64,000 bases of DNA, taken from the NCBI RefSeq assembly GCF_004363305.1, contig NZ_SNZA01000002.1:310001-374000 (forward strand). The letters are read 5' to 3'. The stretch comes from Marinomonas communis (GTDB taxonomy: Bacteria; Pseudomonadota; Gammaproteobacteria; Pseudomonadales; Marinomonadaceae). The position numbers were made by a program, and so were the translations under genes. The notes below the pieces were generated by a model that was given only the letters and a program-made list of their open reading frames with translations, was not told the DNA's origin and made no database searches. Positions 29,029-42,061 of the stretch are shown piece after piece (positions within the stretch are counted from its first letter, which is position 1; each line of letters opens with the position of its first letter).

Positions 29029-30246
29029 CTATGTTTCATCTGCTTGGCTCATCATAGCAAGTGTGGATTCAGAATCGTTCTTGGAGCATTGGAACGATTT
29101 TAGGTCGGTAAGGACAGCATAGTAAGTCAATCCATTCTTACTCTTATCGTAATCAACTTCAGTCGCTATTAAGCTGCCTTTTGAGGAAAGATCCGAGGTA
29201 CTGGCTAATGTCGCGTTCACTTCTACTATAACATCATCTAGTTTTACAATGTCTTTAAGTGCTTTGAGCTCGCTTAGGGTAAAAGACGCGTTTGTATTGA
29301 AGGCCGTAGCCTTGTATTCACGAGCATCATAATAAAGCTCATCTGCACTTAGCGTCATAGTCACGACTTTTAAACGATTGCTATCACCATACTCTTTTAA
29401 TTTTTTAAGGTCGCCACAGGTGAGCTGAAAGCGCTGTATATGAAGGCCGTTTACTACGGTGTAACCACTAGCCTGCTTTTCTCGATTGCCAGAAATAGAA
29501 TTCGATGTCTCTTTTACTACAACGCCACCATCAAATTTCAGAGCCTCAGCCCAGTTATACACGACTCGATTTGGCATCATGGATTGTTTACGTACTTCGT
29601 TTTGCGCTATGCGGAGTGTTTTGAGTGCTCCGTCACGCTTATCTCTTTCGCTTTTGCATGAAGATGATTTTTCGCTAATTTCTTGCTTTGTACCCAACAC
29701 ATCATCCTGCTTCACTACTGTATTTTTCGCTTTATCAGCCTCTCTCTCAGCTACTTCAGCCTCTTTCTTAATTGCTTCAGTCTTTTCATGGGCTAAACAA
29801 ACATAGTAATCCGTGACGGCTCCAACGTACTCAATCTGAGCATCGTTCTCGCTATAAACTGCATCTAAGAAGCCCTGTAAGCGTTGAGTTTTAGCCGTAA
29901 TATCTGATTTATTTTTATCTTGCTGTCCAGAAGTCTTTGAGTTTTGAGCTTCACTGTAGTACTCGTGATAATATTTCCCAGTGCCCTCAATTTCTCGACA
30001 ATTATTAGTAAAAGGCGAGCGATAGCGGCTTGCAGTACAGACCTGCCCAACCTGAAGACCAAGCTGGCCATTTAGAGAAACATAAGTTGTTTGCAAAGGA
30101 TGGTCCCAAATAATCCAACGACTCGGATTCAATACAACCCCATCGTTTGCCGCAACAAGCGTTAACCCATCTACAACATTTAATTGTGAATTAGTGGAAC
30201 AAGCAGAAAGTAGTAAAGCAGCAGGAAATATAAGAGAGCGTTTCAT
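29029..30246 (-). CDS. Unrecognised lipoprotein, 405 residues
   Basis: I do not recognise this protein. It begins with a lipoprotein signal, MKRSLIFPAALLLSAC, giving an acylated Cys16. The mature chain has a folded-looking N-terminal part with CTASRYRSPFTNNC, a charged, probably coiled-coil middle (about 150-200, rich in Lys, Glu and Ala), and a C-terminal half with regularly spaced beta-type stretches such as RFQLTCGDLK and VDDVIVEVNA-like segments. Six or more cysteines follow the lipid-bearing one, suggesting disulphides in the periplasm. It appears more AT-rich in codon use than its neighbours, so it may be a recent acquisition. It stands alone between convergent TauE and an upstream dld gene. 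Confidence 0.75.
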   Translation of the reverse strand: MKRSLIFPAALLLSACSTNSQLNVVDGLTLVAANDGVVLNPSRWIIWDHPLQTTYVSLNGQLGLQVGQVCTASRYRSPFTNNCREIEGTGKYYHEYYSEAQNSKTSGQQDKNKSDITAKTQRLQGFLDAVYSENDAQIEYVGAVTDYYVCLAHEKTEAIKKEAEVAEREADKAKNTVVKQDDVLGTKQEISEKSSSCKSERDKRDGALKTLRIAQNEVRKQSMMPNRVVYNWAEALKFDGGVVVKETSNSISGNREKQASGYTVVNGLHIQRFQLTCGDLKKLKEYGDSNRLKVVTMTLSADELYYDAREYKATAFNTNASFTLSELKALKDIVKLDDVIVEVNATLASTSDLSSKGSLIATEVDYDKSKNGLTYYAVLTDLKSFQCSKNDSESTLAMMSQADET

Positions 30247-30342
30247 AGGCCCTTCCTTGGTTTTGATGACGAAGTTTTAAATAAAGCAAAGAGTCATGAA
30301 AACGCAAGAAATAAGGCCAAGATACACTTTATTTATATCAAC

Positions 30343-33156
30343 CTAAGCTGTTGCCAGCTGATCCACTAGATACACTATCGATTGATATTCAATCCCCGAA
30401 TGTTCGGTTAGGCCTATCTCGCAGGTACGGGAGTTGGAGTAACCGACTTCGCAGTCTTGTACGGCGCTTTTCAGGGTTTTCAGGGCGCTTTGGTTTAACT
30501 CTGGTGTGCTGAAGCCTTTGTCGCCAGCAAAGCCACAGCAGGTGATATCTGGTGGGATAACCACTTCGTCAGCCAGTTGCTGTGCTAAGTTCACAAAGGT
30601 TTGCCCAAGTCCCATGCGAGTGGTGCTACAGGTGATGTGCAGCGCCATTTTCGGGATCTTGCTTTCGATATTTAGATTCACCATGGCGAATTCAGAAAGG
30701 AACTGCACTTGTTCGTAAAGCTTCAATGCTGGATCTAACGATTCCTTCATACGTAATAAACATGGACTGGTGTCACAGACCACTGGCAGTTCACCTTGTT
30801 GGCTGGCTTGCATCAGTAAGGTGTTGAGATCGTTGGCTTTTTGCTCCGCTGCAGCGAATTGCCCTTTGGATTGGAAAGCCATGCCACAGCATTGGCTTTC
30901 AATCCCATTAGGTACAATCACGTTATAGCCCGCTTTTTCCAGTACAGACAGCATAACGTCCATGACAGGACGTTTGTCCTCGGCATTTGGCCCAGCACCC
31001 ATCACACGGGTGGCGCAGCTTGGTACGTAGACCACGCTTGGACGACCAGCTTGTGCGACCCCAATGCGTTGTTTAGGCATGGATGCAGCCGTTGGCATTT
31101 GTGGGTGCCATTTTGGAACCACACCGCCCGTTACACTATTGGCAACGCCAGTTACGGCTTTCATACCACCGTTACCCAAGATATTGCGCATACCGCCTGC
31201 CACCGCTAGGCCAGCACGGGCAGTCTTAGTGACACCTTCAAAGTGATCCGCCACCCAGTAGCCGACCTTAGTGTCATCGTATCGATCATGGCGCAGTTCA
31301 CGGGTCAGATCACCGGTATTGATACCGACGGGACATTGCATCGAACACAGGCCGCAAGCAGCACAGGTATCCACTCCTTGGTAAGCGTATTCTTCGCGTA
31401 ACTCTGTCAGACGTTCTGGTGATTCACCCGAGCGCTCTAAACGCTGAATTTCTCGCCACAATACAATACGCTGACGCGGCGTTAAGGTCAGTGCTCGAGA
31501 AGGACATGCATGCTCACAGAAGCCACATTCGATACAAGTATCCACTTTATCGTTTGCCTGAGGCATTGGCTTAAGGTTCTCAACGTGAATGTTGGCGTTG
31601 TGCGTCAAGATGACATCAGGGTTGAGTAAACCCTTGGGATCAAAGGCTTTTTTCAATTGCCACATGATGTCGTAGGCTTGTTGCCCCCACTCAAGCAGCA
31701 CATAGGGCGCCATATTGCGACCGGTACCGTGTTCCGCTTTCAAAGAGCCGTTGTATTTCACCGCGACCAACTGTGCGACTTCGTCCATTAGGGCTTCGTA
31801 GCGTTTTACTTCCGCAGGATCGTCAAACCCTTGAGTAAAGACAAAATGCAAGTTGCCTTCTAAGGCATGGCCAAACAAGATCGCTTCGCTGTAGCCGTAT
31901 TTTTGGAACACGCCCTGAAGCTCCAATACGCCTTCCGCCAATTGTTCCACGGGAAACGCCACGTCTTCGATAATCACCGTAGTGCCGACTTTACGTACCG
32001 CACCGACCGCTGGGAACATGCCTTTGCGGATCTTCCAATAGGTGTCGTATAAGCCTTTTTCTTGAGTGAATTCAATCTCATACAGTGCATTCATCCCCTG
32101 TAGAGACTGTGTAATCTTAGCCACTTTTTGCTCTAGCTCTGCCGCGGTTGAGCCGCGCACATCCACTAGTAAGCCCGCTACCTCATCGCCAAGGTCTTTG
32201 AGCATTTCTGGCATGCCAGGTTTGCCTTCTACGGTACGAAGGCCAGCACGGTCTATCAGCTCCACTGCGGAAACGGGTGTGCTTTTCAGCACGGTCACCG
32301 CACGACACGTGGTTTCCATATCGGGGAAGTAGATTAGGGCTGCGGCTTTGATCGGGTGCTCTTCGACCGTGTGGTAAGTCACTTCACTGATAAAACCTAA
32401 GGTTCCCTCTGAGCCGATCATTAAGTGCATCAGGATCTCAAATGGGTCGGTAAAATCCACCAAACTGTTCAAACTGTACCCGGTGGTGTTTTTTAGCCTG
32501 TATTTGTGTCTGATTTTGTCTGCTAAATCGCTGTTATTTTGTACACCATAAGCAAGTGTTTCCAATGTAGATAGCAAATCTGAGTGGCTTTCTCGAAATG
32601 CTGTACGACTGTTCTCATCCGCCGTATCGAGCAATGTGCCATCTTCAAAGATAATGCGCATGCTTTTCACAGTGTGATAGCTATTTTGCGCCGTACCGCA
32701 ACACATGCCACTGGCATTATTCGCGGCAATCCCACCGATCATACAGGCGTTAATCGACGCTGGATCAGGGCCGATCTTGCGCTGATAAGGTGCGAGCAAT
32801 TGATTGGCACGAGCGCCGATGATGCCTGGCTGTAACGACACGGCATGACCATGATCGTGAATGCGGTAGCCTTTCCATTGGTCTGACAATTGAATCAGCA
32901 CCGAATCCGTCACCGCTTGCCCAGACAAGCTAGTTCCTCCTGCACGAAACGTGACAGGGATGTCCAGCGCTCGGGTACATTGCAGTACGAAGCGAACCTC
33001 ATCTTCGTTGTGCACACGCACCACCAATTGCGGCACCATACGATAGAAGCTGGCATCGGTTCCGTAGGCAAGGGTACGCAAAGGGTCATGGATAAGTCGT
33101 TCGTCATCGATACGCTCAACGAGCTGGGTGTACAGAGCTTGATAGGGCAGTTTCAT
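30343..33156 (-). CDS. dld: NAD-independent D-lactate dehydrogenase (FAD and Fe-S), Dld/LldE type
   Basis: A flavin and iron-sulfur enzyme of 937 residues that would oxidise D-lactate and pass electrons to the quinone pool. The N-terminal FAD-binding PCMH domain (about 30-260) includes TFRAGGTSLSGQAV and GGIAANNASGMCCG; a FAD-linked oxidase C-terminal domain follows. Two 4Fe-4S motifs are CIECGFCEHACPSR (about 544) and CAACGLCSMQCP (about 595). A C-terminal CCG-type domain (about 710-930) carries SQCCGMAFQSKG and TCCGFAGDKG. Length and architecture match the 938-residue Pseudomonas enzyme. The gene is divergent from an LldR-like regulator, with two operators between, so lactate induction is likely. 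Confidence 0.92.
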   Translation of the reverse strand: MKLPYQALYTQLVERIDDERLIHDPLRTLAYGTDASFYRMVPQLVVRVHNEDEVRFVLQCTRALDIPVTFRAGGTSLSGQAVTDSVLIQLSDQWKGYRIHDHGHAVSLQPGIIGARANQLLAPYQRKIGPDPASINACMIGGIAANNASGMCCGTAQNSYHTVKSMRIIFEDGTLLDTADENSRTAFRESHSDLLSTLETLAYGVQNNSDLADKIRHKYRLKNTTGYSLNSLVDFTDPFEILMHLMIGSEGTLGFISEVTYHTVEEHPIKAAALIYFPDMETTCRAVTVLKSTPVSAVELIDRAGLRTVEGKPGMPEMLKDLGDEVAGLLVDVRGSTAAELEQKVAKITQSLQGMNALYEIEFTQEKGLYDTYWKIRKGMFPAVGAVRKVGTTVIIEDVAFPVEQLAEGVLELQGVFQKYGYSEAILFGHALEGNLHFVFTQGFDDPAEVKRYEALMDEVAQLVAVKYNGSLKAEHGTGRNMAPYVLLEWGQQAYDIMWQLKKAFDPKGLLNPDVILTHNANIHVENLKPMPQANDKVDTCIECGFCEHACPSRALTLTPRQRIVLWREIQRLERSGESPERLTELREEYAYQGVDTCAACGLCSMQCPVGINTGDLTRELRHDRYDDTKVGYWVADHFEGVTKTARAGLAVAGGMRNILGNGGMKAVTGVANSVTGGVVPKWHPQMPTAASMPKQRIGVAQAGRPSVVYVPSCATRVMGAGPNAEDKRPVMDVMLSVLEKAGYNVIVPNGIESQCCGMAFQSKGQFAAAEQKANDLNTLLMQASQQGELPVVCDTSPCLLRMKESLDPALKLYEQVQFLSEFAMVNLNIESKIPKMALHITCSTTRMGLGQTFVNLAQQLADEVVIPPDITCCGFAGDKGFSTPELNQSALKTLKSAVQDCEVGYSNSRTCEIGLTEHSGIEYQSIVYLVDQLATA

Positions 33157-33226
33157 AAGGGCATCCAGTTTTTATGATGAGGACTGGCAATCACTCATCA
33201 CGTAACTTATTAAATTCTTTTAATAT

Positions 33227-33245
33227 AAATTGGTAATACCAATTT
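33227..33245. promoter_or_regulatory. LldR/PdhR-type operator 1
   Basis: AAATTGGTAATACCAATTT is a perfect 19-base palindrome. TTGGT-N3-ACCAA is the core recognised by FadR-subfamily GntR proteins such as LldR and PdhR. It lies 71 bases before the dld start. Confidence 0.9.
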
Positions 33246-33397
33246 ACCTTTGTTATTTTTCATGACAATAGAAACCTTTTTGTAAATTGTCAAACTGTAC
33301 ATTTATAAGAAATTAGCGACTTTTAGGCTATATTTTTACTTGTTTTACCAATTTTATGGTTATTAACAAAATTCTATTTCCCTGTTGATAAACTTAA

Positions 33398-33414
33398 TAT
33401 TGGTCATACCAATA
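33398..33414. promoter_or_regulatory. LldR/PdhR-type operator 2
   Basis: TATTGGTCATACCAATA has one mismatch from perfect symmetry. It lies 44 bases before the regulator's own start, so it probably gives autoregulation. Confidence 0.9.
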
Positions 33415-33457
33415 ATGATTTTATCTTTTAAAACAATACGTCTAGTAAGAGAAAAAT

Positions 33458-34231
33458 ATGACTCAGCGCCCCTTTCAGCGAGCAAAACAGACCAAAATAT
33501 CCGATCTCATCATGCAAGAGCTAGAAAGTATGATTTTGGACGGTACGTTTAAAGCAGGGCAAAAATTACCGCCAGAACGAGAATTAGCAGAACGCTTTGA
33601 AGTGTCACGCCCATCATTAAGAGAAGCGATACAAAAACTGGCTGCTCGCGGCGTGGTGGCCACCAAGCACGGTGGAGGGACTTACGTATCCGACCAGATC
33701 GGTTCTTCGTTTACCGACCCGCTGCAAGCCCTGTTAAGTTCACATGATGAGTTTTTGTATGATCAATTAGAGTTTCGCGATGCTTTGGAAGGGTTATCGG
33801 CTTACTATGCAGCGCTGCGTGCGACCGATGCGGACAAGGCGATGCTCACTCAGCGTTATGAAGCCTTATTAGAAGCAAACCGCCAGCAGGATGCTCAGCA
33901 AGAATCCAAGCTAGACGCTGAATTTCATATGGCCATTGCAGAATGCGCTCACAATGTCGTGTTATTGCACACCCTACGTAGCTTATTCGCGATTTTAGAG
34001 AACAGTATTTCTGCCAATTTAAGCAATTTGTTTGAGAAGAAAGCGGCTCGCGGGCAAGTCATGACACAACACAAAGCGCTTTATGAAGCGATCATGGCAG
34101 GCAAACCGGAAGAAGCCCGTGCTGCCGTACACTCGCATTTAGTCTTTGTCGAAGACCACTTATTGAAGATGCGCCGCGAGGAATCGCGAATACAACGCTC
34201 CCTGCGACGCAGTGAAAACGCTAACCGCTGA
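33458..34231 (+). CDS. lldR: FadR-subfamily GntR regulator, LldR-like
   Basis: The protein has 257 residues. The winged helix-turn-helix (about 8-75) reads LPPERELAERFEVSRPSLREAIQ and GVVATKHGGGTYVSD; the C-terminal FCD ligand domain (about 90-245) includes the metal-site pattern of FCD proteins, with Asp in ESKLDAEFHMAIAECAHN and His in MTQHKALYEAIM. It resembles LldR and PdhR. It is divergent from the D-lactate dehydrogenase, and two matching palindromes lie between, so lactate-responsive repression is likely. Its end overlaps the MATE gene by 11 bases on the opposite strand. Confidence 0.92.
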   Translation: MTQRPFQRAKQTKISDLIMQELESMILDGTFKAGQKLPPERELAERFEVSRPSLREAIQKLAARGVVATKHGGGTYVSDQIGSSFTDPLQALLSSHDEFLYDQLEFRDALEGLSAYYAALRATDADKAMLTQRYEALLEANRQQDAQQESKLDAEFHMAIAECAHNVVLLHTLRSLFAILENSISANLSNLFEKKAARGQVMTQHKALYEAIMAGKPEEARAAVHSHLVFVEDHLLKMRREESRIQRSLRRSENANR

Positions 34232-35573
34232 ACCACACACCTTTTATAAGGTTACGGCGATAACACCACCACAGTGTCACGGCACGGGCGATAAAGAACA
34301 GCGCCATGCTGAGCCATAAGCCATGATTGCCCAGCCCTTGGGTGATAAACCATAATGGGAAGAAGATCCCTAACACGCTGATAATCATGGTGTTTTGCAT
34401 CTGCTTTACACTGGTGGTGCCGATGAAAATGCCATCGAGCATGTAGGACCAAATACCCAACAGAGGAAAAGCAATCAACCACGGTAGGTACAGTTTGGCT
34501 TGCGCTCGAACCGACTCAACGCTGGTCAGCAAATCAATGATTAAGCCGCCAAAGGCAGTGAAAATCAGCATCAGAAGCACGGCTGCGACGACAGCCCAAT
34601 AGGTTGATAAGCGGATAACTTTTTGGAACAGCTCGCGGTTTTTACGGCCCAGATATTCGCCACATAGGGCTTCCACGGAAAAGGCAAAACCGTCCAAGGC
34701 ATTGGAGATAATCATTAGAAAGGTCATCAGCACCGCGTTGGCCGCAAGTATGGCATCCCCTTGACGTGCGCCTTGAGCGGTAAAGAAGGTCATTACTGTC
34801 AGTAGCAAGATCGTTCTCACAAACAAGTAACGATTTACCTGTACCAATTCGATGTAAGTACGCCATTTCGAAAGATCAACTAGCGGTACATGACCATCAA
34901 AACGCTGTAACTGCTTCGCAGCCAATACCAGCGCAAACACCACGCCCAAATAGTGCGATGCGACAGTCGCCCAAGCCACACCAACACTGGCCATCTCCCA
35001 TTGGTACACTGCGATATAGTCGAGCACCATATTGGCAAGGTTAATCACCAATAGCATCCAAAGAGGGCCTTTGGAGTATTGCACACCAAAGAACCAGCCC
35101 ATCAAGGCATAATCCGCCAGCACTGCAGGAGCACTGTAAATCCGTGCTTCGCAATAAGCGCGTGCCCAAGGCTCTAATTCTGCACTTGGCGCCATAAAGT
35201 AGATCGCCAATTCGATAATGGGTGCTTGGAACACAATCAGCAGCAAACCAATCCCAATCCCCATCGCAAGAGACTGCAATAACAAGGCACGCACTTGTCG
35301 GCCATCTTCACGGCCCAGCGCTTGAGCCGTTAGTCCTGTAGAGCCCATACGCAAAAAACCAAATGCCCAAAACAAGAAACTATAGATGCTGGCACCAATC
35401 GCGACCGCACCAAGGTGAATAGCAGTGCCTAAATGTCCCACCACCGCAGTGTCGACTAAGCCCAATAAAGGCGTAGTGATGTTAGACACCATGGGTGGCC
35501 ACGCCATATGCCAGATCTTGCGGTTCAATTCACCGTCTCGTTTAAAGCGTTTTACAAGCTGTTGAAAACTCAA
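34221..35573 (-). CDS. dinF: DinF-like MATE-family efflux transporter
   Basis: A multidrug/oxidant efflux transporter of 450 residues with 12 expected membrane helices. Landmarks are WPPMVSNITTPLLGLVDTAVVGHLG (read as separate segments PPMVSNITTP and LLGLVDTAVVGHLG), TGLTAQALG, and the second half segment ALDGFAFSVEALCGEYLGRK. These match DinF. The start is TTG at 35573 with GAGG upstream; there is no better ATG. It stands just downstream of a DnaA-box cluster and may be SOS-linked as in E. coli, but I see no LexA box here. Confidence 0.88.
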   Translation of the reverse strand: MSFQQLVKRFKRDGELNRKIWHMAWPPMVSNITTPLLGLVDTAVVGHLGTAIHLGAVAIGASIYSFLFWAFGFLRMGSTGLTAQALGREDGRQVRALLLQSLAMGIGIGLLLIVFQAPIIELAIYFMAPSAELEPWARAYCEARIYSAPAVLADYALMGWFFGVQYSKGPLWMLLVINLANMVLDYIAVYQWEMASVGVAWATVASHYLGVVFALVLAAKQLQRFDGHVPLVDLSKWRTYIELVQVNRYLFVRTILLLTVMTFFTAQGARQGDAILAANAVLMTFLMIISNALDGFAFSVEALCGEYLGRKNRELFQKVIRLSTYWAVVAAVLLMLIFTAFGGLIIDLLTSVESVRAQAKLYLPWLIAFPLLGIWSYMLDGIFIGTTSVKQMQNTMIISVLGIFFPLWFITQGLGNHGLWLSMALFFIARAVTLWWCYRRNLIKGVWFSG

Positions 35574-35899
35574 GCTAAGCCTCGGAAATTGCTAATCTGT
35601 GAACATCCACTAATTGTGGATAACTAATTTTCTCTATTCGCCACTCACACAACAATCAGCCTGTGGACATTATCGCCTGTTATACACAAAACCGCTTATA
35701 TTAGACAGTTTTCAACTGCTGATAGAATAAAATCGTGTTTTTATATCCACAAAAGCATCGTTATCCACAGACTAGCAGGGAAGGTTACGTCTTTATCAAA
35801 ATGTATTGACATCTGGATAACTGAGCGTTTTTTCCACAATTTGCTTTAAAATGGTCGGTATTTTGCTAAACTCGGCGGCGAAAATTTTGGGGAATGGTT
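35574..35899. promoter_or_regulatory. DnaA-box cluster in the dinF upstream gap
   Basis: Six DnaA-box-like 9-mers lie in 224 bases. Perfect TTATCCACA: 35761-35769 (plus) and 35615-35623 (minus). Fits TTWTNCACA: TTATACACA at 35680-35688 and TTTTCCACA at 35830-35838. One mismatch: ATATCCACA at 35743-35751 and TTATCCAGA (minus) at 35812-35820. The region is AT-rich and has no gene. It may be a DnaA-titration, DARS-like or origin-like site. Confidence 0.55.
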
Positions 35900-36097
35900 A
35901 TGAAAAAAACATTAAAACCGATTTTAGAAGGCCTTGCAGTAGGCTGTGTCTTTATCAGTATTACCATGCTGTTTGAGATTCCATTTTACATGAGCTTAAT
36001 CATCGGTGCATTGGCAGCGCTCGGTGGCTACCGTAACTCGATTAAAATGGACAAAGAAAAGTCAGAAAAAGCAGCGGCGAACAAACAAGATGACTGA
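35900..36097 (+). CDS. Small membrane protein upstream of truncated haemoglobin
   Basis: A 65-residue protein I do not recognise. It has two hydrophobic helices (about 10-29 and 31-48) with a charged C-terminal tail rich in Lys and Glu ending NKQDD. The ATG at 35900 has GGGGA six bases upstream. The stop overlaps the start of the truncated haemoglobin gene (ATGACTGA), so the two are translationally coupled. A membrane anchor or partner for the haemoglobin is an attractive guess without direct evidence. Confidence 0.75.
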   Translation: MKKTLKPILEGLAVGCVFISITMLFEIPFYMSLIIGALAALGGYRNSIKMDKEKSEKAAANKQDD

Positions 36098-36530
36098 GGC
36101 TTCAACTCGGCCAGCATTCGGTGAGGGCGATGCGACTCTGCAAGCAGTAGGGGGCATGGAAGGCTTAACGAAGCTGGTGCATAACTTTTACCGTATCATG
36201 GCGGAAACATCAGACTACCGTCCGTTATTTGAGATGCACCCACAGCCCATCGACACCTCTATTGATAAATTGGTGTTGTTCCTGCACGGCTGGATGGGCG
36301 GTGAGCGAATGTACGCTAAAAAATACGGTCAAATCGCTTTGCCACGGGCCCACGCACACTTACAAGTGAACGATAAAGAGCGCCTGATGTGGCTTAACTG
36401 CATGTCCGATGCCATCCGTGATCTAGGCTATCCGGAAGAGTTACGAGCTTATTTGGTCTCAGCGTTTAGCGTTCCAGCAGGTCGTATTCAGCAGGTGAGC
36501 CAAGCCACACACGGCCAAGGATCTGAATAA
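36090..36530 (+). CDS. Group II truncated haemoglobin
   Basis: A haem protein of 146 residues, resembling group II truncated globins of gammaproteobacteria. The B10 Tyr is in LVHNFYRIM; the proximal His is in LPRAHAHLQV (about 86-88); group II features follow with MWLNCMSDAIRDLG, whose Trp is the G8 residue. Such proteins bind oxygen or nitric oxide. The gene overlaps the small membrane protein by eight bases and faces norR convergently; hmp follows beyond norR. A nitric oxide detoxification role is likely from context. Confidence 0.9.
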   Translation: MTEASTRPAFGEGDATLQAVGGMEGLTKLVHNFYRIMAETSDYRPLFEMHPQPIDTSIDKLVLFLHGWMGGERMYAKKYGQIALPRAHAHLQVNDKERLMWLNCMSDAIRDLGYPEELRAYLVSAFSVPAGRIQQVSQATHGQGSE

Positions 36531-36541
36531 GCACGCTAGCG

Positions 36542-38116
36542 CTAAGAGTTACGTTGTTTCGTGACTTCAATGCCTAAACGTTTAGCCAAACGAACCAAGT
36601 TCGCACGATCCATCGCCAATGATCGTGCGGCTTGCGCCCAATTCAGCCCCGCCTGATCCAACGCCTGTTGGATAGTTTGACGTTGAAAATCTTCTGTTGC
36701 CTGTTTTAGATCTTGGATCTCAGCTGTATCTAACCCTATCTTGTTTGGTTGCTCTTTGAGTGATTCTTTTGGCACTGAAAACGCGTCCACTAGCCCTGTT
36801 AAGTGCATGGGCTCAATTCTCGTAATCCCTTGATTAGTATTACTTTTTGCCAATAGCGCCGCACGAGACAAGACGTGCTCTAGCTCGCGAACATTGCCCG
36901 GCCAACGATACGCTTTCAGCCACTCACTGGCTTTAGGGGAAAGGGTTAACTGCTGCAGGCCGAACTTACGACGCAATTGTTCTGCGAAAAATCCCGCCAA
37001 TAGCAGTACATCACCATTACGTTCGCGCAAAGGCGGCACAGCAATCGGAAACACACTCAAGCGATGGTATAAATCGGCGCGAAAGCGCTTTTCCACCACT
37101 TCTTGTTTAAGATCTCGGTTAGTGGCTGCGATGATGCGCACGTCTACGTATTCGATCTTATCTTTGCCTACGGCTTGGATTTCTTGGTTTTGAATCGCCC
37201 TTAACAGGCTACCTTGGGCTTCCAAAGGCAGCTCACCAATTTCATCAAGAAACAAAGTGCCACCGTGAGCCAAGGTAAACTTACCAACACGGTCACGATC
37301 CGCGCCTGTAAATGCCCCTTTAACATGACCAAACAGCTCACTCTCAATCAGATTTTCCGGAATCGCGGCGCAGTTTACGTACACCATGGGGGCTTGAGCC
37401 CGTTTCGAAGCACGATGCAAAGTACGCGCGACTAACTCTTTACCTACGCCGGTTTCGCCTTCGATCAATACTGCCAAATCCGCAGGAGCGACCAGCTCCA
37501 AGTGCTGCTTCAAAGTCAGCATGGCTTGGCTTTGGCCGATCATTTCCGTGGCTTCTTTGTTCAAGGCATCTTCGCTGAGCTCGACAAGCAATTCTTCGGC
37601 ATGTTTCGATTTGCGCTCCAAACGCGCCAGCAACATGGCGGTATTTAAGCTCATCGCGGCCATGGTGCCGACGATTTCCAACGCTCGGGCATCAATCGAA
37701 TCAAACGCTCCAGGCGTCATACTGTCGAGCGTCACCACCCCAAGCATATTGCCTTGCACGTACAAAGGAATGCCCATGCAGGCATGCACAGGCAGGCCAT
37801 CATCAAAACCAGACACCATGCCATCGTAAGGATCGGGAAGGGAGCAGCCAGTCGGAAAGCGTACCGGCTGGTACGCATCGCAGATCTCGGTAAAGCGTGG
37901 ATGCTCGCTAATGTTAAAGCGACGTCCCATGACATCATCCATCAAGCCCTGCTGGGCCAGTGGCAATAGCAAATCACCTTTACGCTCTAACAAAACCACC
38001 GCATCACAATCAACGGCTGCACGTATAGCGCGAATCAGTCGTTCAAAGCGATCTTCTAGGGTAACAGCGCTGGCCAAATCCAGGGCAAAACGCAGCAAAG
38101 CATCCGTGGAAATCAT
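36542..38116 (-). CDS. norR: NorR nitric oxide-responsive sigma-54 activator
   Basis: A bacterial enhancer-binding protein of 524 residues. The N-terminal GAF domain (about 1-170) would hold the mononuclear iron that senses NO. The AAA+ domain carries Walker A GETGVGKE (about 217-224) and the sigma-54 contact loop GAFTGA (about 266-271); the C-terminal Fis-type helix-turn-helix (about 480-520) has LNWAQAARSLAMDRANL. It resembles E. coli NorR. It is divergent from hmp, whose promoter shows a sigma-54 -24/-12 element and NorR-type sites. Confidence 0.92.
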   Translation of the reverse strand: MISTDALLRFALDLASAVTLEDRFERLIRAIRAAVDCDAVVLLERKGDLLLPLAQQGLMDDVMGRRFNISEHPRFTEICDAYQPVRFPTGCSLPDPYDGMVSGFDDGLPVHACMGIPLYVQGNMLGVVTLDSMTPGAFDSIDARALEIVGTMAAMSLNTAMLLARLERKSKHAEELLVELSEDALNKEATEMIGQSQAMLTLKQHLELVAPADLAVLIEGETGVGKELVARTLHRASKRAQAPMVYVNCAAIPENLIESELFGHVKGAFTGADRDRVGKFTLAHGGTLFLDEIGELPLEAQGSLLRAIQNQEIQAVGKDKIEYVDVRIIAATNRDLKQEVVEKRFRADLYHRLSVFPIAVPPLRERNGDVLLLAGFFAEQLRRKFGLQQLTLSPKASEWLKAYRWPGNVRELEHVLSRAALLAKSNTNQGITRIEPMHLTGLVDAFSVPKESLKEQPNKIGLDTAEIQDLKQATEDFQRQTIQQALDQAGLNWAQAARSLAMDRANLVRLAKRLGIEVTKQRNS

Positions 38117-38141
38117 GACATTACTCGTATTTATCAGATAA

Positions 38142-38156
38142 GAGTCATTATGACTC
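38142..38156. promoter_or_regulatory. NorR-type site 1
   Basis: GAGTCATTATGACTC is a perfect 15-base palindrome that contains GT-N7-AC, the NorR core. Confidence 0.75.
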
Positions 38157-38187
38157 GAAAGGATTAAAATGACACTTGATAAAACGT

Positions 38188-38198
38188 GTCACTTTGAC
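38188..38198. promoter_or_regulatory. NorR-type site 2
   Basis: GTCACTTTGAC fits GT-N7-AC. It lies 46 bases from site 1, in the upstream-activator position for the sigma-54 promoter. Confidence 0.65.
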
Positions 38199-38252
38199 AT
38201 AAATCAGATTTATAAAAAACAGTAAGCATATGATTTATATAGGTTTTATTTT

Positions 38253-38270
38253 TTGGCATTAAATTCGCTA
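38253..38270 (+). promoter_or_regulatory. Sigma-54 promoter of hmp
   Basis: TTGGCATTAAATTCGCTA has GG at 38255-38256 and GC at 38267-38268, with the required ten bases between. It is 66 bases before the hmp start. Confidence 0.8.
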
Positions 38271-38335
38271 TAAGTAAATCAAATAGCTCATGTTTAGAGC
38301 CCTTGAAACACCTACTTATAGTGGAGACGTTAAAA

Positions 38336-39529
38336 ATGCTTTCTCAAACTCATATCGATACCGTTAAGGCAACCATTCCTGTTCTAGCATCCGCTGGCAC
38401 CGCCATTACTGAACACTTTTACAACCGTATGTTTACTCATAACCCTGAGCTAAAAGACGTGTTCAACATGTCACACCAAGCCACAGGTCGCCAGCCAGCC
38501 GCGCTGTTTAATGCTATTGCCGCTTACGCTACTCATATCGATAACCTAGAAGTGCTAACGGGTGCGGTGATGCGCATTGCTCATAAACACACCAGCTTTA
38601 ACATTCAAGCGGATCAATACGCTATCGTCGGCCACCATCTGATTGAAACCCTACGTGAGCTACTCGGTGACGCTTTCACAGCAGATATTGAAGAAGCATG
38701 GGACGCAGCCTACCAGCAACTGGCTGATATCTTTATCCAAATCGAAGGTGACCTGTACAAAGCCAATGCAGCGAAAAACGGCGGTTGGGAAGGTTTCCGA
38801 AAATTCCGCGTTGCCAAAAAGCAAACTGAATCTGAATTGGTCACAAGCTTTACTTTTGTACCCGTTGACGGTGGTAATGTGGTGGACTTCCAGCCTGGTC
38901 AGTACCTAGGTATCAAAGTTCACCCGAACAACCATGAGTTTGATGAGATCCGCCAGTATAGTCTTTCTACCGCAGCGAACGGTCAAAGCTACCGCATCAG
39001 CGTCAAACGTGAGCTAGGAGACGTAAAAAATGGTGTGGTTTCCAACTACCTACACGACAGTATCGAAGAGGGCGACGAAGTAGAGCTCATGCCACCTGCA
39101 GGCGACTTCCATTACCAAGAACGCCAACGTCCAGTGGTCTTGATCTCCGCAGGCGTTGGTTTAACACCAATGAACGCCATGCTTGATACCTTAGCAAGCC
39201 AAGGCAGCCAAAACCCCATTTTCTACCTACACGCTTGCCGCAACCCACAGCAACACTCGTTTGCAGAACATGTTGAGGGTCTAGCTCAAACACTCAACCT
39301 GACTCACTACACTTGGCTAGAAAACGGCGCACCAGAGAACACTGAGCGTGTCTTGGCGGGCCAAATGCAGCTAGGGCAGATCTCTGAAATCCTGCCGCTG
39401 GCGGATGGTGATTTCTACTTGTGTGGCCCAGTAGGCTTTATGATGTTTATCAAAGAACAACTGCTCAGCCTAGGCGTCAGCGATGATCGCATTCACTACG
39501 AAGTCTTTGGCCCACATCAGAGTTTTTAA
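38336..39529 (+). CDS. hmp: Flavohaemoglobin (nitric oxide dioxygenase)
   Basis: A flavohaemoglobin of 397 residues, close to E. coli Hmp (396). The globin domain (1-135) has Tyr29 at B10 and proximal His85 in IAHKHTSFN. The FAD-binding domain follows with RQYSLS, the RxYS motif, and the NAD domain with GVGLTPM and the final FYLCGPVGFM, ending YEVFGP. It would convert NO and O2 to nitrate using NADH. The start ATG at 38336 has GTGGAG upstream. It is divergent from norR with a sigma-54 promoter between. REP-like units follow the gene. Confidence 0.95.
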   Translation: MLSQTHIDTVKATIPVLASAGTAITEHFYNRMFTHNPELKDVFNMSHQATGRQPAALFNAIAAYATHIDNLEVLTGAVMRIAHKHTSFNIQADQYAIVGHHLIETLRELLGDAFTADIEEAWDAAYQQLADIFIQIEGDLYKANAAKNGGWEGFRKFRVAKKQTESELVTSFTFVPVDGGNVVDFQPGQYLGIKVHPNNHEFDEIRQYSLSTAANGQSYRISVKRELGDVKNGVVSNYLHDSIEEGDEVELMPPAGDFHYQERQRPVVLISAGVGLTPMNAMLDTLASQGSQNPIFYLHACRNPQQHSFAEHVEGLAQTLNLTHYTWLENGAPENTERVLAGQMQLGQISEILPLADGDFYLCGPVGFMMFIKEQLLSLGVSDDRIHYEVFGPHQSF

Positions 39530-39543
39530 AGCAAAAGACTCAA

Positions 39544-39616
39544 TGTAGGACCGCGGTTTCCGCGGGAAAGAAACTCTGATTCGCGAGGCTTTTCCCTCGC
39601 ACAGCGAGGTCCTACA
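39544..39616. repeat. REP-like unit 1
   Basis: A 73-base unit starting TGTAGGACCGCGG and ending GCGAGGTCCTACA. Inside are a CCGCGG-TTT-CCGCGG stem and a CTCGC-ACAG-CGAG stem, and the ends are inverted, so each unit folds as a small cruciform. Confidence 0.85.
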
Positions 39617-39622
39617 ACCTAC

Positions 39623-39695
39623 TGTAGGACCGCGGTTTCCGCGGGAATGGAGCTATGATTCGCAGGCTTTTTCCCTCGCACTGCGAGGTCCTACA
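39623..39695. repeat. REP-like unit 2
   Basis: Second 73-base unit, 79 bases downstream of the first, with the same ends and stems; the spacer is ACCTAC. Confidence 0.85.
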
Positions 39696-39701
39696 ACCTA
39701 C

Positions 39702-39774
39702 TGTAGGACCGCGGTTTCCGCGGGAATGGAGCTATGACTCGCAGGCTTTTTCCCTCGCACAGCGAGCTCCTACA
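39702..39774. repeat. REP-like unit 3
   Basis: Third unit with the same 79-base period. It ends AGCGAGCTCCTACA, with one change from the others, and lies just before the minus-strand stop at 39781. Confidence 0.8.
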
Positions 39775-39780
39775 AAATAT

Positions 39781-40938
39781 TCAGCCCTGCTTAAACGGCA
39801 ATAGTGCGTGGGTATCTTGATGGTACTCACGTACGGCTTTGGCTTCTTCTTGGCAGAAGTTGCCAATCGCTTCACGAAAGCCGGGGTTATCGATGTAATG
39901 TACGCTGTGGCTAAACACCGGCTCGAAGCCACGGGCGATTTTGTGTTCCCCTTGAGTGCCTGGATCAAAATGCTGTAACCCTTTTTCGATACAGAACTCG
40001 ATGCCTTGGTAGTAACAGGCTTCAAAGTGCAGGCAGTCAAATTCCTCGATACAACCCCAATAACGGCCATAAAGTGAGTGATCGTCGAAGAAACACCAAG
40101 AAGCGCCTACCGGCTGATCACCTTTGTAGGCCAGCACCAGCAGAATCTGCTCGGCCATGCTTTTCACCAGCTGTTGAAAGAAAGCTTCGCTGAGATACCC
40201 CGTCTGACCACGTTTAGCGTAGGTGCTTTGGTAGCAAACATAGAAGAATTGCACTTCTTCTGGGGTTAACTCAGGACCCAGCTTGCGCTCTAAACGAAGG
40301 CCCTGCTGAGCGATCTTGTCACGCTCTTTACGGGCACTTTTGCGCTTACGGCTGGAGAAGTGGCTAAAGTAGTCCTCCATGGACTGATAGCCTTTGTTAA
40401 ACCAATGGAACTGGCAGGAAATACGGTGCAGATACTCATCGGATTGCCCTAAATGCTCGGCCAAGTGCTCGCGGCAAAACAGCAGATGCCAGCTGGAAAA
40501 CTCACGCTCTTGGTTAGCTTGGGTAATAACAGGTGCAAGCGCCGCGTACAAAGACACGTATTCTTCCGAATGCCCCGTTGGATCAAGATGAGTAAATAAA
40601 CGCGGCCCCGTGACAGGGGAGTAAGGCACCGCCCAAACGCGCTTTGGGTAATACTGATAACCATAGCGTTGGTAAGCATCGGCCCAAGACCAATCGAACA
40701 CAAATTCCCCATGGGAATGGGTTTTCAAGAAGGTGGGAGCAATGGCTAATGGCGCGTCATCGTCTTCCATCACCAGCAAATACTCTGGATACCAGCCTGT
40801 GCCATCGCCTAGACAGCCATGTTCCTCTAAAGCTTGGTAAAACGCATATTGCGCAAAAGGATAGGAGGTCTCGCCAATAGCTTGTTGCCAGCGCTCGTAG
40901 CCAATATCCGCTACCGATGCAAACCATTGAGCTTTCAT
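39781..40938 (-). CDS. COG3146/DUF482 GNAT-like protein
   Basis: A cytoplasmic protein of 385 residues that resembles COG3146 (PF04339), often annotated as peptidoglycan recognition or FemAB/GNAT-like. Landmarks are FDWSWADAYQRYGYQYYPK near the N-terminal third, and SHFSSRKRKSARKERDKI, GRYWGCIEEFDCLHFEACYYQGIE and FDPGTQGEHKIARGFEP, which are family-typical. Its substrate is not known. The gene lies after aroE beyond a structured repeat region on the same strand, and it may share a transcript with aroE. Confidence 0.85.
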   Translation of the reverse strand: MKAQWFASVADIGYERWQQAIGETSYPFAQYAFYQALEEHGCLGDGTGWYPEYLLVMEDDDAPLAIAPTFLKTHSHGEFVFDWSWADAYQRYGYQYYPKRVWAVPYSPVTGPRLFTHLDPTGHSEEYVSLYAALAPVITQANQEREFSSWHLLFCREHLAEHLGQSDEYLHRISCQFHWFNKGYQSMEDYFSHFSSRKRKSARKERDKIAQQGLRLERKLGPELTPEEVQFFYVCYQSTYAKRGQTGYLSEAFFQQLVKSMAEQILLVLAYKGDQPVGASWCFFDDHSLYGRYWGCIEEFDCLHFEACYYQGIEFCIEKGLQHFDPGTQGEHKIARGFEPVFSHSVHYIDNPGFREAIGNFCQEEAKAVREYHQDTHALLPFKQG

Positions 40939-40971
40939 GGAACCTCCCTAGAACAAGAATGTTAAAAGGCA

Positions 40972-41064
40972 TAAGTTATCGTCTTCGAGTCGGCTCAACA
41001 GCACATCCCTGTGCTGGTTAGCCGATGCCGTCATCCTGACGGCAGCTCTCAGACTGATAACTCA
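40972..41064 (-). repeat. Structured repeat element, copy A
   Basis: A 93-base element with inverted ends TAAGTTATC and GATAACTCA (one mismatch). Read on the minus strand it has the hairpins GCCGTCA-GGA-TGACGGC (41027-41043) and CAGCACA-GGGA-TGTGCTG (40999-41016). The latter contains ACAGGGATGT, which fits the CsrA SELEX core ACARGGAUGU. Confidence 0.7.
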
Positions 41065-41152
41065 TACCTAAAAAGTATGCTGATCTCTTACAAAGATCAT
41101 GAACTCATCTGAGTAAAGTCGTTTGGTTCAAGCTACGCTGATGTGAGCATCG

Positions 41153-41247
41153 ATAAGAATCGAACGAAGGTCAGCCATCAGGATGATGGCGAAGGCTCAA
41201 TCGGCACAAGGATGTGCCGTCTGAGCCTGACCGAAGACGATTCTTAT
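41153..41247 (+). repeat. Structured repeat element, copy B
   Basis: A 95-base element in inverted orientation to copy A. The ends ATAAGAATCG and CGATTCTTAT pair perfectly. Inside are GGTCAG/CTGACC, the hairpin GCCATC-AGGAT-GATGGC (41174-41190), and GGCTCA/TGAGCC capped by GGCACA-AGGA-TGTGCC (41203-41218), which includes ACAAGGATGT. Confidence 0.75.
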
Positions 41248-41260
41248 TGAGTGGAATGAC

Positions 41261-42061
41261 CTACATCTCAGCTCGAAGCTTTTCAATCACTGGTGCTTGA
41301 GCTGGGCGCTGGTGCAGCCACATAAAGAAGGCTTCCGCCGCTTGGCCAACCAACATTCCTAAACCGTCGGCACCTTGTGCACCACGGGCAAAGGCCCACT
41401 GCATAAATACGGTTGGTTCCGCGCCATAGACCATGTCGTAGACCCATGTTTTATCGTTCACGAGACTATCTTTCAAAGGAGGAAGCTCGCCGCCAAGGCT
41501 GGCAGAGGAACCATTGATAATAATATCGAAAGGTCCTTTTAGGTCATCAAAGCTTGAATAGTCGCAGTTGAAAAGCTGTGCCAGTTCTTCGGCTTTCGCG
41601 ACCGTTCGGTTCGCAATCACCACGATATCAGGGTTTTGTGCCATCACCGGACCTAACACACCGCGCACAGCACCACCGGCACCGATTACCAAAATACGTT
41701 TGTCTTTAAGTGGTTGCTCAAGTACTTTGACGATGTCGCGCACCATGCCTGCACCATCAGTGTTATCACCATAGAGTTCGCCATTTTTGCCCATCATCAG
41801 GGTATTCACGGCACCCGCTTGCTCAGCACGTTTGCTTAGCTTGTCGCACATATCGAAGGCACGCTGCTTGAAAGGAACAGTGACGTTCATGCCTACTCCA
41901 CCGTCAGCAAAGAAGTCTCGCACTTGCTGCTCAAAGCCTTCTAAATCGCCCAAGATTTTACGATAGTTCACCGCCAGCCCCAGCTGCTCAGCAAACGCAT
42001 GATGGATTTCTGGGGATTTACTGTGTTCGATTGGATTACCGATAACCGCAAGCTGTTGCAC
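41261..42061 (-). CDS. aroE: Shikimate dehydrogenase AroE
   Basis: A cytoplasmic enzyme of 266 residues that reduces 3-dehydroshikimate to shikimate with NADPH. Motifs are IGNPIEHSKSPEIH near the N-terminus, NVTVPFKQRAF with the catalytic Lys, NTDGAGMVRD, the cofactor-binding GAGGAVRGV, and the C-terminal GLGMLVGQAAEAF. Its length is standard. It follows hemF by 43 bases, the common hemF-aroE arrangement in gammaproteobacteria. Confidence 0.97.
   Translation of the reverse strand: MQQLAVIGNPIEHSKSPEIHHAFAEQLGLAVNYRKILGDLEGFEQQVRDFFADGGVGMNVTVPFKQRAFDMCDKLSKRAEQAGAVNTLMMGKNGELYGDNTDGAGMVRDIVKVLEQPLKDKRILVIGAGGAVRGVLGPVMAQNPDIVVIANRTVAKAEELAQLFNCDYSSFDDLKGPFDIIINGSSASLGGELPPLKDSLVNDKTWVYDMVYGAEPTVFMQWAFARGAQGADGLGMLVGQAAEAFFMWLHQRPAQAPVIEKLRAEM

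What the first reader, a model, noticed from the sequence alone, without database searches (positions are those of the whole stretch)
35574..35899. Cluster of six DnaA boxes in a gene-free AT-rich gap
The sequence shows two perfect TTATCCACA boxes, two that fit the relaxed TTWTNCACA consensus and two with one mismatch within 224 bases. The gap lies between a dinF-like transporter and a small membrane protein plus truncated haemoglobin, not in a familiar oriC neighbourhood. In E. coli, similar clusters titrate DnaA (datA) or reactivate it (DARS). A cluster this dense is unlikely by chance and may be a DnaA-control site, a second origin-like element, or an unusual oriC position.
Basis: partly seen in the sequence, partly recalled or inferred. 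Interest (0 to 1): 0.72.

Follow-up and report, generated by a model that had tools for sequence, protein, structure and literature searches.

The report
Conserved DnaA-box cluster near oriC
Beside the replication origin of Marinomonas bacteria lies a short non-coding stretch packed with likely binding sites for the replication starter protein DnaA, kept in nearly every genome examined and sharing a paired-site layout with the origin, so it probably soaks up or senses DnaA to help time the copying of the chromosome.

Summary
In detail: six boxes lie at 35615-35838 as described, beyond chance (0 of 5000 simulated gaps had three perfect boxes). A weaker but conserved seventh box (35662-35670) was missed.

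The locus is not oriC: dnaA and its box array lie 53-54 kb away and the regional GC-skew minimum 60 kb away. It is origin-proximal.

It is conserved. All 45 Marinomonas genomes with the neighbouring small gene carry a cluster there; two more keep it without that gene; in one 77%-complete genome it was not found. Box columns are 85% conserved, columns between boxes 51%.

New here: a diverging pair of boxes with a 9-bp gap is the commonest of 204 pair layouts both in the cluster (43 of 45) and in the dnaA-side oriC (40 of 41); E. coli oriC has none better than 4 mismatches.

DARS geometry was tested and not met; a conserved strict IHF site was not found. Closest in kind are the oriC-proximal DnaA-box clusters of Bacillus subtilis. 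Most likely it is a DnaA titration/timing site that may also control the adjacent promoter. No Hda reached the cut-off in 48 genomes. Function is inferred.

The parts
35574..35893 (.). Intergenic DnaA-box cluster between divergent MATE and small-membrane-protein genes
   Evidence: Boxes by search; 38.1% GC; present at the same place in 45 of 45 genomes with the small gene and in 2 of 3 without it
35615..35623 (-). DnaA box TTATCCACA, perfect
   Evidence: columns 87-100% conserved over 45 genomes
35662..35670 (-).
   Evidence: columns 69-100% conserved
35680..35688 (+). DnaA box TTATACACA, right half of the upstream dyad
   Evidence: columns 93-100% conserved apart from the degenerate fifth position at 58%
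35662..35688 (.). Divergent DnaA-box dyad with 9-bp gap (boxes point away from each other, starts 18 bp apart)
   Evidence: a div18 pair at <=2 mismatches in 43 of 45 clusters, <=3 in 45 of 45 (in some genomes the best-scoring pair is at another place in the cluster)
35743..35751 (+). DnaA-box-like ATATCCACA, one mismatch, poorly conserved
   Evidence: columns 38-73% conserved
35761..35769 (+). DnaA box TTATCCACA, perfect
   Evidence: columns 51-98% conserved
35812..35838 (.). Second divergent dyad with 9-bp gap: TTATCCAGA (-) 35812-35820 and TTTTCCACA (+) 35830-35838
   Evidence: 35830 box columns 91-100% conserved, 35812 box columns 53-98%
35867..35872 (+). Candidate -10 element TAAACT (inside TTTGCTAAA), whose motif starts 23-24 bp beyond the last box in 33 of 45 genomes
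   Evidence: inferred from conservation only, since the sigma-70 consensus scan found no promoter in 35400-36100
35894..36097 (+). Small protein, 67 aa, hydrophobic by eye, found only in this genus
   Evidence: 45 of 48 genus genomes; 18 of 390 order genomes, all 18 of the same genus; no Pfam or NCBIfam match
36090..36530 (+). Truncated haemoglobin (Bac_globin)
   Evidence: PF01152, E 2.5e-18
34221..35573 (-). MATE transporter, DinF-like, divergent from the cluster
   Evidence: PF01554; best NCBIfam NF007690 at 353 bits, below its 409 cut-off; divergent neighbour in 45 of 45

Best explanation
This is an oriC-proximal DnaA-binding cluster that Marinomonas keeps a few tens of kilobases downstream of dnaA (the dnaN side). 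It carries one well-conserved oriC-type pair of boxes (diverging, 9-bp gap), a second weaker pair, and single high-affinity boxes. The most likely mechanism: DnaA binds here as it does at oriC; because the locus is copied in the first few percent of replication, its duplication soon after initiation adds high-affinity sites that draw free DnaA away from oriC and delay re-initiation (titration). The promoter-side pair probably also makes the globin-operon promoter respond to DnaA. Shown by sequence: boxes, conservation, spacing, location. Inferred: DnaA binding, titration, effect on initiation and on the promoter.
For: Density above chance. 45 of 45 genomes with the small gene have 4-9 boxes of <=1 mismatch in the upstream 420 bp, a stretch that includes the MATE start; G043 and G044, in which the small gene is not detectable, keep 7 and 8 boxes between MATE and globin. 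Box columns 0.846 conserved against 0.51 between boxes. Location 24.0-89.1 kb from dnaA, median 57.7 kb, in 39 of 45 genomes (the other 6 have the two on different contigs); downstream of dnaA in 38 of 39. The top pair layout (diverging, 18 bp start to start) is the same as in the dnaA-side oriC, 40 of 41, and is in excess in the own genome, 15 against 1 in the reversed-pattern control at <=2 mismatches. Precedents: oriC-proximal clusters in B. subtilis titrate DnaA and work less well when moved to terC (PMC5010248, passages); in E. coli and Salmonella boxes accumulate near oriC (PMC12371093, passages). No Hda reached the family cut-off in 48 genus genomes, so another brake on DnaA is plausible.
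Against: No binding or phenotype data. In 45 of 45 the cluster sits in a divergent gap, and the last box is phased to a candidate -10 (23-24 bp, 33 of 45 genomes), as expected of plain transcription control. Six or seven boxes are few against 106 perfect sites genome-wide, so its share of titration could be small. In B. [quoted passage not shown] The tandem 2- or 3-bp double box preferred by E. coli DnaA (PMC11317965, passages) is nearly absent here: at <=2 mismatches the 2-bp layout fits 0 of 45 on either strand, the 3-bp layout 1 of 45 on one strand and 0 on the other.
Confidence: 0.52

Rival explanations
1. The cluster is mainly a DnaA-regulated divergent promoter: DnaA activates or represses the small-protein/globin operon and perhaps the MATE gene, tying a globin function to the cell cycle. 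Location near oriC would be incidental synteny.
For: Divergent gene pair in 45 of 45. Last box strongly conserved (columns 91-100%) and at a fixed 23-24 bp from a candidate -10 motif in 33 of 45. In G043, where the small gene is not detectable, a TTTGCTAAA motif still lies between cluster and globin (read by eye).
Against: The upstream dyad and the 35615 box lie about 205-280 bp from the small gene and are about as conserved as the promoter-side boxes. The cluster remains in 2 genomes without the small gene. No sigma-70 consensus promoter found (0 found, 1.3 expected by chance). Two diverging pairs plus single boxes exceed what a simple operator needs (judgement).
Confidence: 0.32
2. It is a DnaA-reactivating (DARS) or DnaA-ATP-hydrolysing (datA) site of E. 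coli type.
For: Non-coding box cluster at a conserved distance from oriC, as for datA and DARS (PMC5742627 and PMC4585315, passages).
Against: DARS core layout (boxes I and II converging, starts 14 bp apart; II and III tandem, 12 bp; the same in E. coli DARS1, and DARS2) fits 1 of 45 and 0-1 of 45 clusters at <=2 mismatches. Strict IHF consensus in 6 of 45 clusters against 30 of 41 oriC stretches (the oriC stretches are three to four times longer). Different gene neighbourhood, no tRNA within 30000-42000.
Confidence: 0.1
3. It is a second, working replication origin or a displaced copy of oriC.
For: Shares the diverging 9-bp-gap pair with oriC; AT-rich gap.
Against: Cumulative GC skew keeps falling through the locus and is lowest at 406.0 kb. 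The most AT-rich 50-bp stretch (76%) is below the 95th percentile of window pieces (78%), against 78% in dnaA-rpmH and 86% on the mnmG side. No dnaA, rpmH or mnmG beside it.
Confidence: 0.03
4. The motif is bound by another palindrome-recognising regulator whose site happens to resemble DnaA boxes.
For: The diverging pair is a 27-bp inverted repeat, like a dimer operator; a near-identical pair recurs elsewhere in the genus.
Against: The same pair lies in the dnaA-side oriC stretch in 40 of 41 genomes, and single boxes of the cluster match TTATCCACA exactly.
Confidence: 0.03

Closest known systems
oriC-proximal DnaA-box clusters (DBCs) of Bacillus subtilis (Okumura et al. 2012; cited through passages of PMC5010248 and PMC5295017, the paper itself not held)
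   Same: Groups of DnaA boxes outside oriC, close to oriC; reported to titrate DnaA; position matters
   Different: Other phylum; here one conserved cluster found, with paired boxes of oriC layout; no functional data
datA of Escherichia coli
   Same: Intergenic DnaA-box cluster, oriC-proximal
   Different: No conserved strict IHF site, no tRNA operon or queG beside it, other box layout
DARS1/DARS2 of Escherichia coli
   Same: Intergenic box cluster at a conserved distance from oriC
   Different: Core of converging then tandem boxes not found; DARS sites lie between oriC and terC at 0.81 and 2.97 Mb (PMC5742627), this lies 24-89 kb from dnaA
Marinomonas oriC (dnaA-rpmH box array)
   Same: Same diverging pair with 9-bp gap
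   Different: Fewer boxes, no origin genes beside it, no skew turn
Double DnaA boxes at E. coli DnaA targets (PMC11317965, passages)
   Same: Paired boxes at fixed spacing
   Different: There 2-3 bp apart in tandem; here diverging with a 9-bp gap

Membership tests
DnaA-box cluster outside oriC (DBC-like) | Several consensus DnaA boxes within a few hundred bases, beyond chance | tested here: met
DnaA-box cluster outside oriC (DBC-like) | Conserved, near oriC but not at it | tested here: met
   47 of 48 genus genomes; 24-89 kb from dnaA in 39 genomes
DnaA-box cluster outside oriC (DBC-like) | Binds DnaA and delays initiation; deletion gives early initiation | not testable with these tools
   needs ChIP and a deletion strain
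datA | Functional IHF site between boxes | tested here: inconclusive
   strict consensus WATCAANNNNTTR (recalled) in 6 of 45 clusters and not in this one; a degenerate site is not excluded
datA | Stimulates DnaA-ATP hydrolysis | not testable with these tools
   biochemical
DARS | Core of three boxes, box I opposed to II and III, with fixed spacing | tested here: not met
   spacing 14 and 12 bp read from E. coli DARS1 and DARS2; fits 1 of 45 and 0-1 of 45 clusters at <=2 mismatches, 6 and 2-6 of 45 at <=3
DARS | Releases ADP from DnaA | not testable with these tools
   biochemical
oriC | Box array with skew minimum and origin genes | tested here: not met
   skew minimum of the 310-430 kb stretch at 406.0 kb, 60 kb away; dnaA, rpmH, mnmG elsewhere
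DnaA-regulated promoter | DnaA box at fixed distance from a promoter | tested here: inconclusive
   box phased to a conserved TTTGCTAAA/TTTGCTAGA motif in 33 of 45; no sigma-70 consensus promoter found

The most novel reading that the evidence does not exclude
Marinomonas has lost Hda, so replisome-linked inactivation of DnaA in its known form is missing. Early-duplicated, oriC-mimicking clusters like this one would then be a main brake on re-initiation: a natural gammaproteobacterium run largely by DnaA titration, using a diverging 9-bp-gap box pair as its basic DnaA-binding unit at oriC and at the sink.
Probability: 0.2. Interest if true: 0.78.

Novelty: new variant of a known kind. Interest (0 to 1): 0.55.

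Why it matters
How far bacteria time replication by titrating DnaA and how far by switching its nucleotide state is debated, mostly in E. coli, where models combine both (PMC12371093, abstract and passages; PMC9640692, start of abstract in a listing). A relative in which no Hda reaches the family cut-off, and which keeps one compact, genus-wide DnaA-box cluster next to oriC, offers a simpler case: deleting a few hundred bases would test titration directly. The shared diverging pair with 9-bp gap, found within about 10 kb of dnaA in 10 of 15 chosen genomes of the order, points to a DnaA-binding unit not seen in the E. coli oriC.

Tried and rejected
Second origin: rejected on skew and gene context. 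DARS: rejected on geometry. RNA element: Rfam at gathering scores found none in L002, which covers the cluster. tRNA-linked datA analogue: no tRNA in 30000-42000. Role tied to the small protein alone: weakened by G043 and G044. Tracing the cluster outside the genus through the small protein failed, because that protein was found in 18 of 390 order genomes, all of the same genus; a cluster elsewhere in the order without that gene is not excluded. Genes beside other own-genome dyads (10 proteins scanned) showed no clear DnaA regulon, and several dyads lie inside coding sequence. Two weak Hda candidates (G045, G046) turned out to be nucleoside-kinase-like: G045 by NCBIfam, G046 by its similar sequence. 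In G041 one dyad locus was looked at (L176): no MATE, globin, small protein or mnmG there, so the cluster of that incomplete genome stays unresolved. My first look for the E. coli DARS2 core used the wrong side of mutH; one search corrected this and gave the same spacing as DARS1.

Full report
What is there. A seventh at 35662-35670 completes a diverging pair with the box at 35680-35688. The gap 35574-35893 is 38.1% GC and lies between a MATE gene and a 67-aa hydrophobic protein followed by a truncated haemoglobin. Chance does not explain it: 0 of 5000 simulated gaps had three perfect boxes, and 106 random sites in 3.85 Mb gave a triple this tight in 0.075% of 20,000 trials. Over the whole window boxes are not in excess (45 against 58.9 expected).

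Where it lies. The window is positions 310001-374000 of contig C2 of an 11-contig, 3.85-Mb genome. The genus is Marinomonas: of 36 named loci found with the small protein, 35 are labelled Marinomonas and one Maribrevibacterium. The nearest genome, G021, is 94% identical over the 332-bp query, and its contig has the same length as one of M. ostreistagni USM7. The dnaA domain lies at 398.7-399.2 kb. Two box arrays lie nearby: dnaA-rpmH at 399.8-400.1 kb and upstream of mnmG at 405.8-406.3 kb (rpmH read by eye). Cumulative GC skew over 310-430 kb falls through 345.7 kb, runs flat at about 352-382 kb and is lowest at 406.0 kb; the rest of the genome was not examined. So the locus is a neighbour of oriC, 54-60 kb away, and not an origin.

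Conservation. The small protein was found in 45 of 48 genomes of the genus. In all 45 the 420 bp upstream (which include the MATE start) hold 4-9 boxes with at most one mismatch. The common order is boxes at about -295 (-), -249 (-), -231 (+), -139 (+) and -70 (+); several genomes, among them G003, G022, G035 and G042, have shifted or lost single boxes. Of the three genomes without the protein, G043 and G044 keep MATE, globin and 7 and 8 boxes between them; in G041, 77% complete, no such locus was found. That makes 47 of 48. Between boxes the alignment has decayed (mean column identity 0.51, 178 columns) while box columns stay at 0.846 (63 columns), even counting the unconserved 35743 box. In the 39 of 45 genomes with both on one contig the distance to dnaA is 24.0-89.1 kb, median 57.7 (G039 counted across the end of its single contig, taken as circular). 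In 38 of 39 the cluster lies downstream of dnaA, which in G000 is the dnaN side; G035 is the exception.

The paired-box rule. For four orientation classes and every start-to-start distance from 9 to 59 bp (204 classes), I counted sequences with a pair at <=2 mismatches. The diverging pair 18 bp apart (9-bp gap) came first in the clusters, 43 of 45 (45 of 45 at <=3), and first in the dnaA-side oriC stretches, 40 of 41 (41 of 48 genomes fetched); the class median was 1 in both; in a 360-bp control stretch downstream it was 0 of 45. Neighbouring distances 17 and 19 gave 0 of 45. The rows are related genomes, so these counts are not independent. The best such pair in E. coli oriC has 4 mismatches. 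In the own genome the pattern at <=3 mismatches occurs 36 times against 12 for the reversed control, and at <=2 mismatches 15 against 1. In 140 genomes of other genera of the order the totals are 203 against 88, so the excess there is modest (summed, row count checked). In 15 of them that I chose from a capped listing for strong or multiple pairs (a biased choice), 10 had a listed pair within about 10 kb of dnaA; one had it 25 kb away, the others further off or on another contig. The pair therefore looks like an old origin element that this cluster shares.

How it may work. Best reading: DnaA binds the cluster; doubled soon after initiation, it lowers free DnaA near oriC. Precedents are the B. 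subtilis clusters (PMC5010248 passages; PMC5295017 passages, which also say that the effect is strong only when all six are removed and elsewhere play their role down) and the accumulation of boxes near oriC in E. coli and Salmonella (PMC12371093 passages). The chief rival is promoter control: the last box is 23-24 bp from a conserved TTTGCTAAA/TTTGCTAGA in 33 of 45 genomes, though no consensus promoter was found. Both may be true. The E. coli types were tested: the DARS core (14 and 12 bp in DARS1 and DARS2) fits 0-1 of 45 at <=2 mismatches, and a strict IHF site is in 6 of 45.

Hda. The Hda model TIGR03420 reached its cut-off in 0 of 48 Marinomonas genomes; the best match in each lies at dnaA. 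One of 14 control genomes exceeded the cut-off (the output does not say which). Hda proteins of two other genera of the order score 269 and 284 bits against a cut-off of 194.8. With the DnaA domain, 11 of 15 other-order genomes show a second match of 236-262 aa covering at least 120 of 162 positions; none of the 48 Marinomonas does. A highly diverged Hda is not excluded, and in 46 of 48 genomes only 47 candidates were scored. If Hda is truly absent, titration gains weight. This link is inference.

Literature. Ten searches were made; only two named Marinomonas. One search (Marinomonas with DnaA box) listed 2 papers, by title on a Pseudomonas island and on Kangiella, neither read. One search listed 8 of 132 papers, none holding the word Marinomonas. 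The library holds open-licence papers only, so absence from print is not shown. Papers were read as passages; PMC9640692 was seen only in listings.

Noticed in passing
whole genus, G000-G047: No Hda over the curated cut-off in 48 of 48 Marinomonas genomes, though two other genera of the order have clear Hda, beside a gene that looks PerM-like by eye.
   Followed up: partly
G000:C2:405802-406272 (L045): A second dense DnaA-box array upstream of mnmG coincides with the GC-skew minimum of 310-430 kb; the working oriC may be there and not at dnaA-rpmH.
   Followed up: partly
G000:C2:82660; G019, G028, G032, G041, G043, G044: A near-identical diverging box pair (AGTGGATAAGTGCCTAAGTTATTAACA type) recurs across the genus, three copies in G041 and two in G028; in G000 it overlaps the 3' end of an FBPase gene. 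No Rfam match in L159.
   Followed up: partly
35894-36097: 67-aa protein found only in this genus, not detectable in G043 and G044 while the flanking genes stay.
   Followed up: partly
L179 (G043:C24:192500-196500): In G043 mnmG with its own box array lies about 31 kb from dnaA, against about 6 kb in G000: the origin region differs between species.
   Followed up: no
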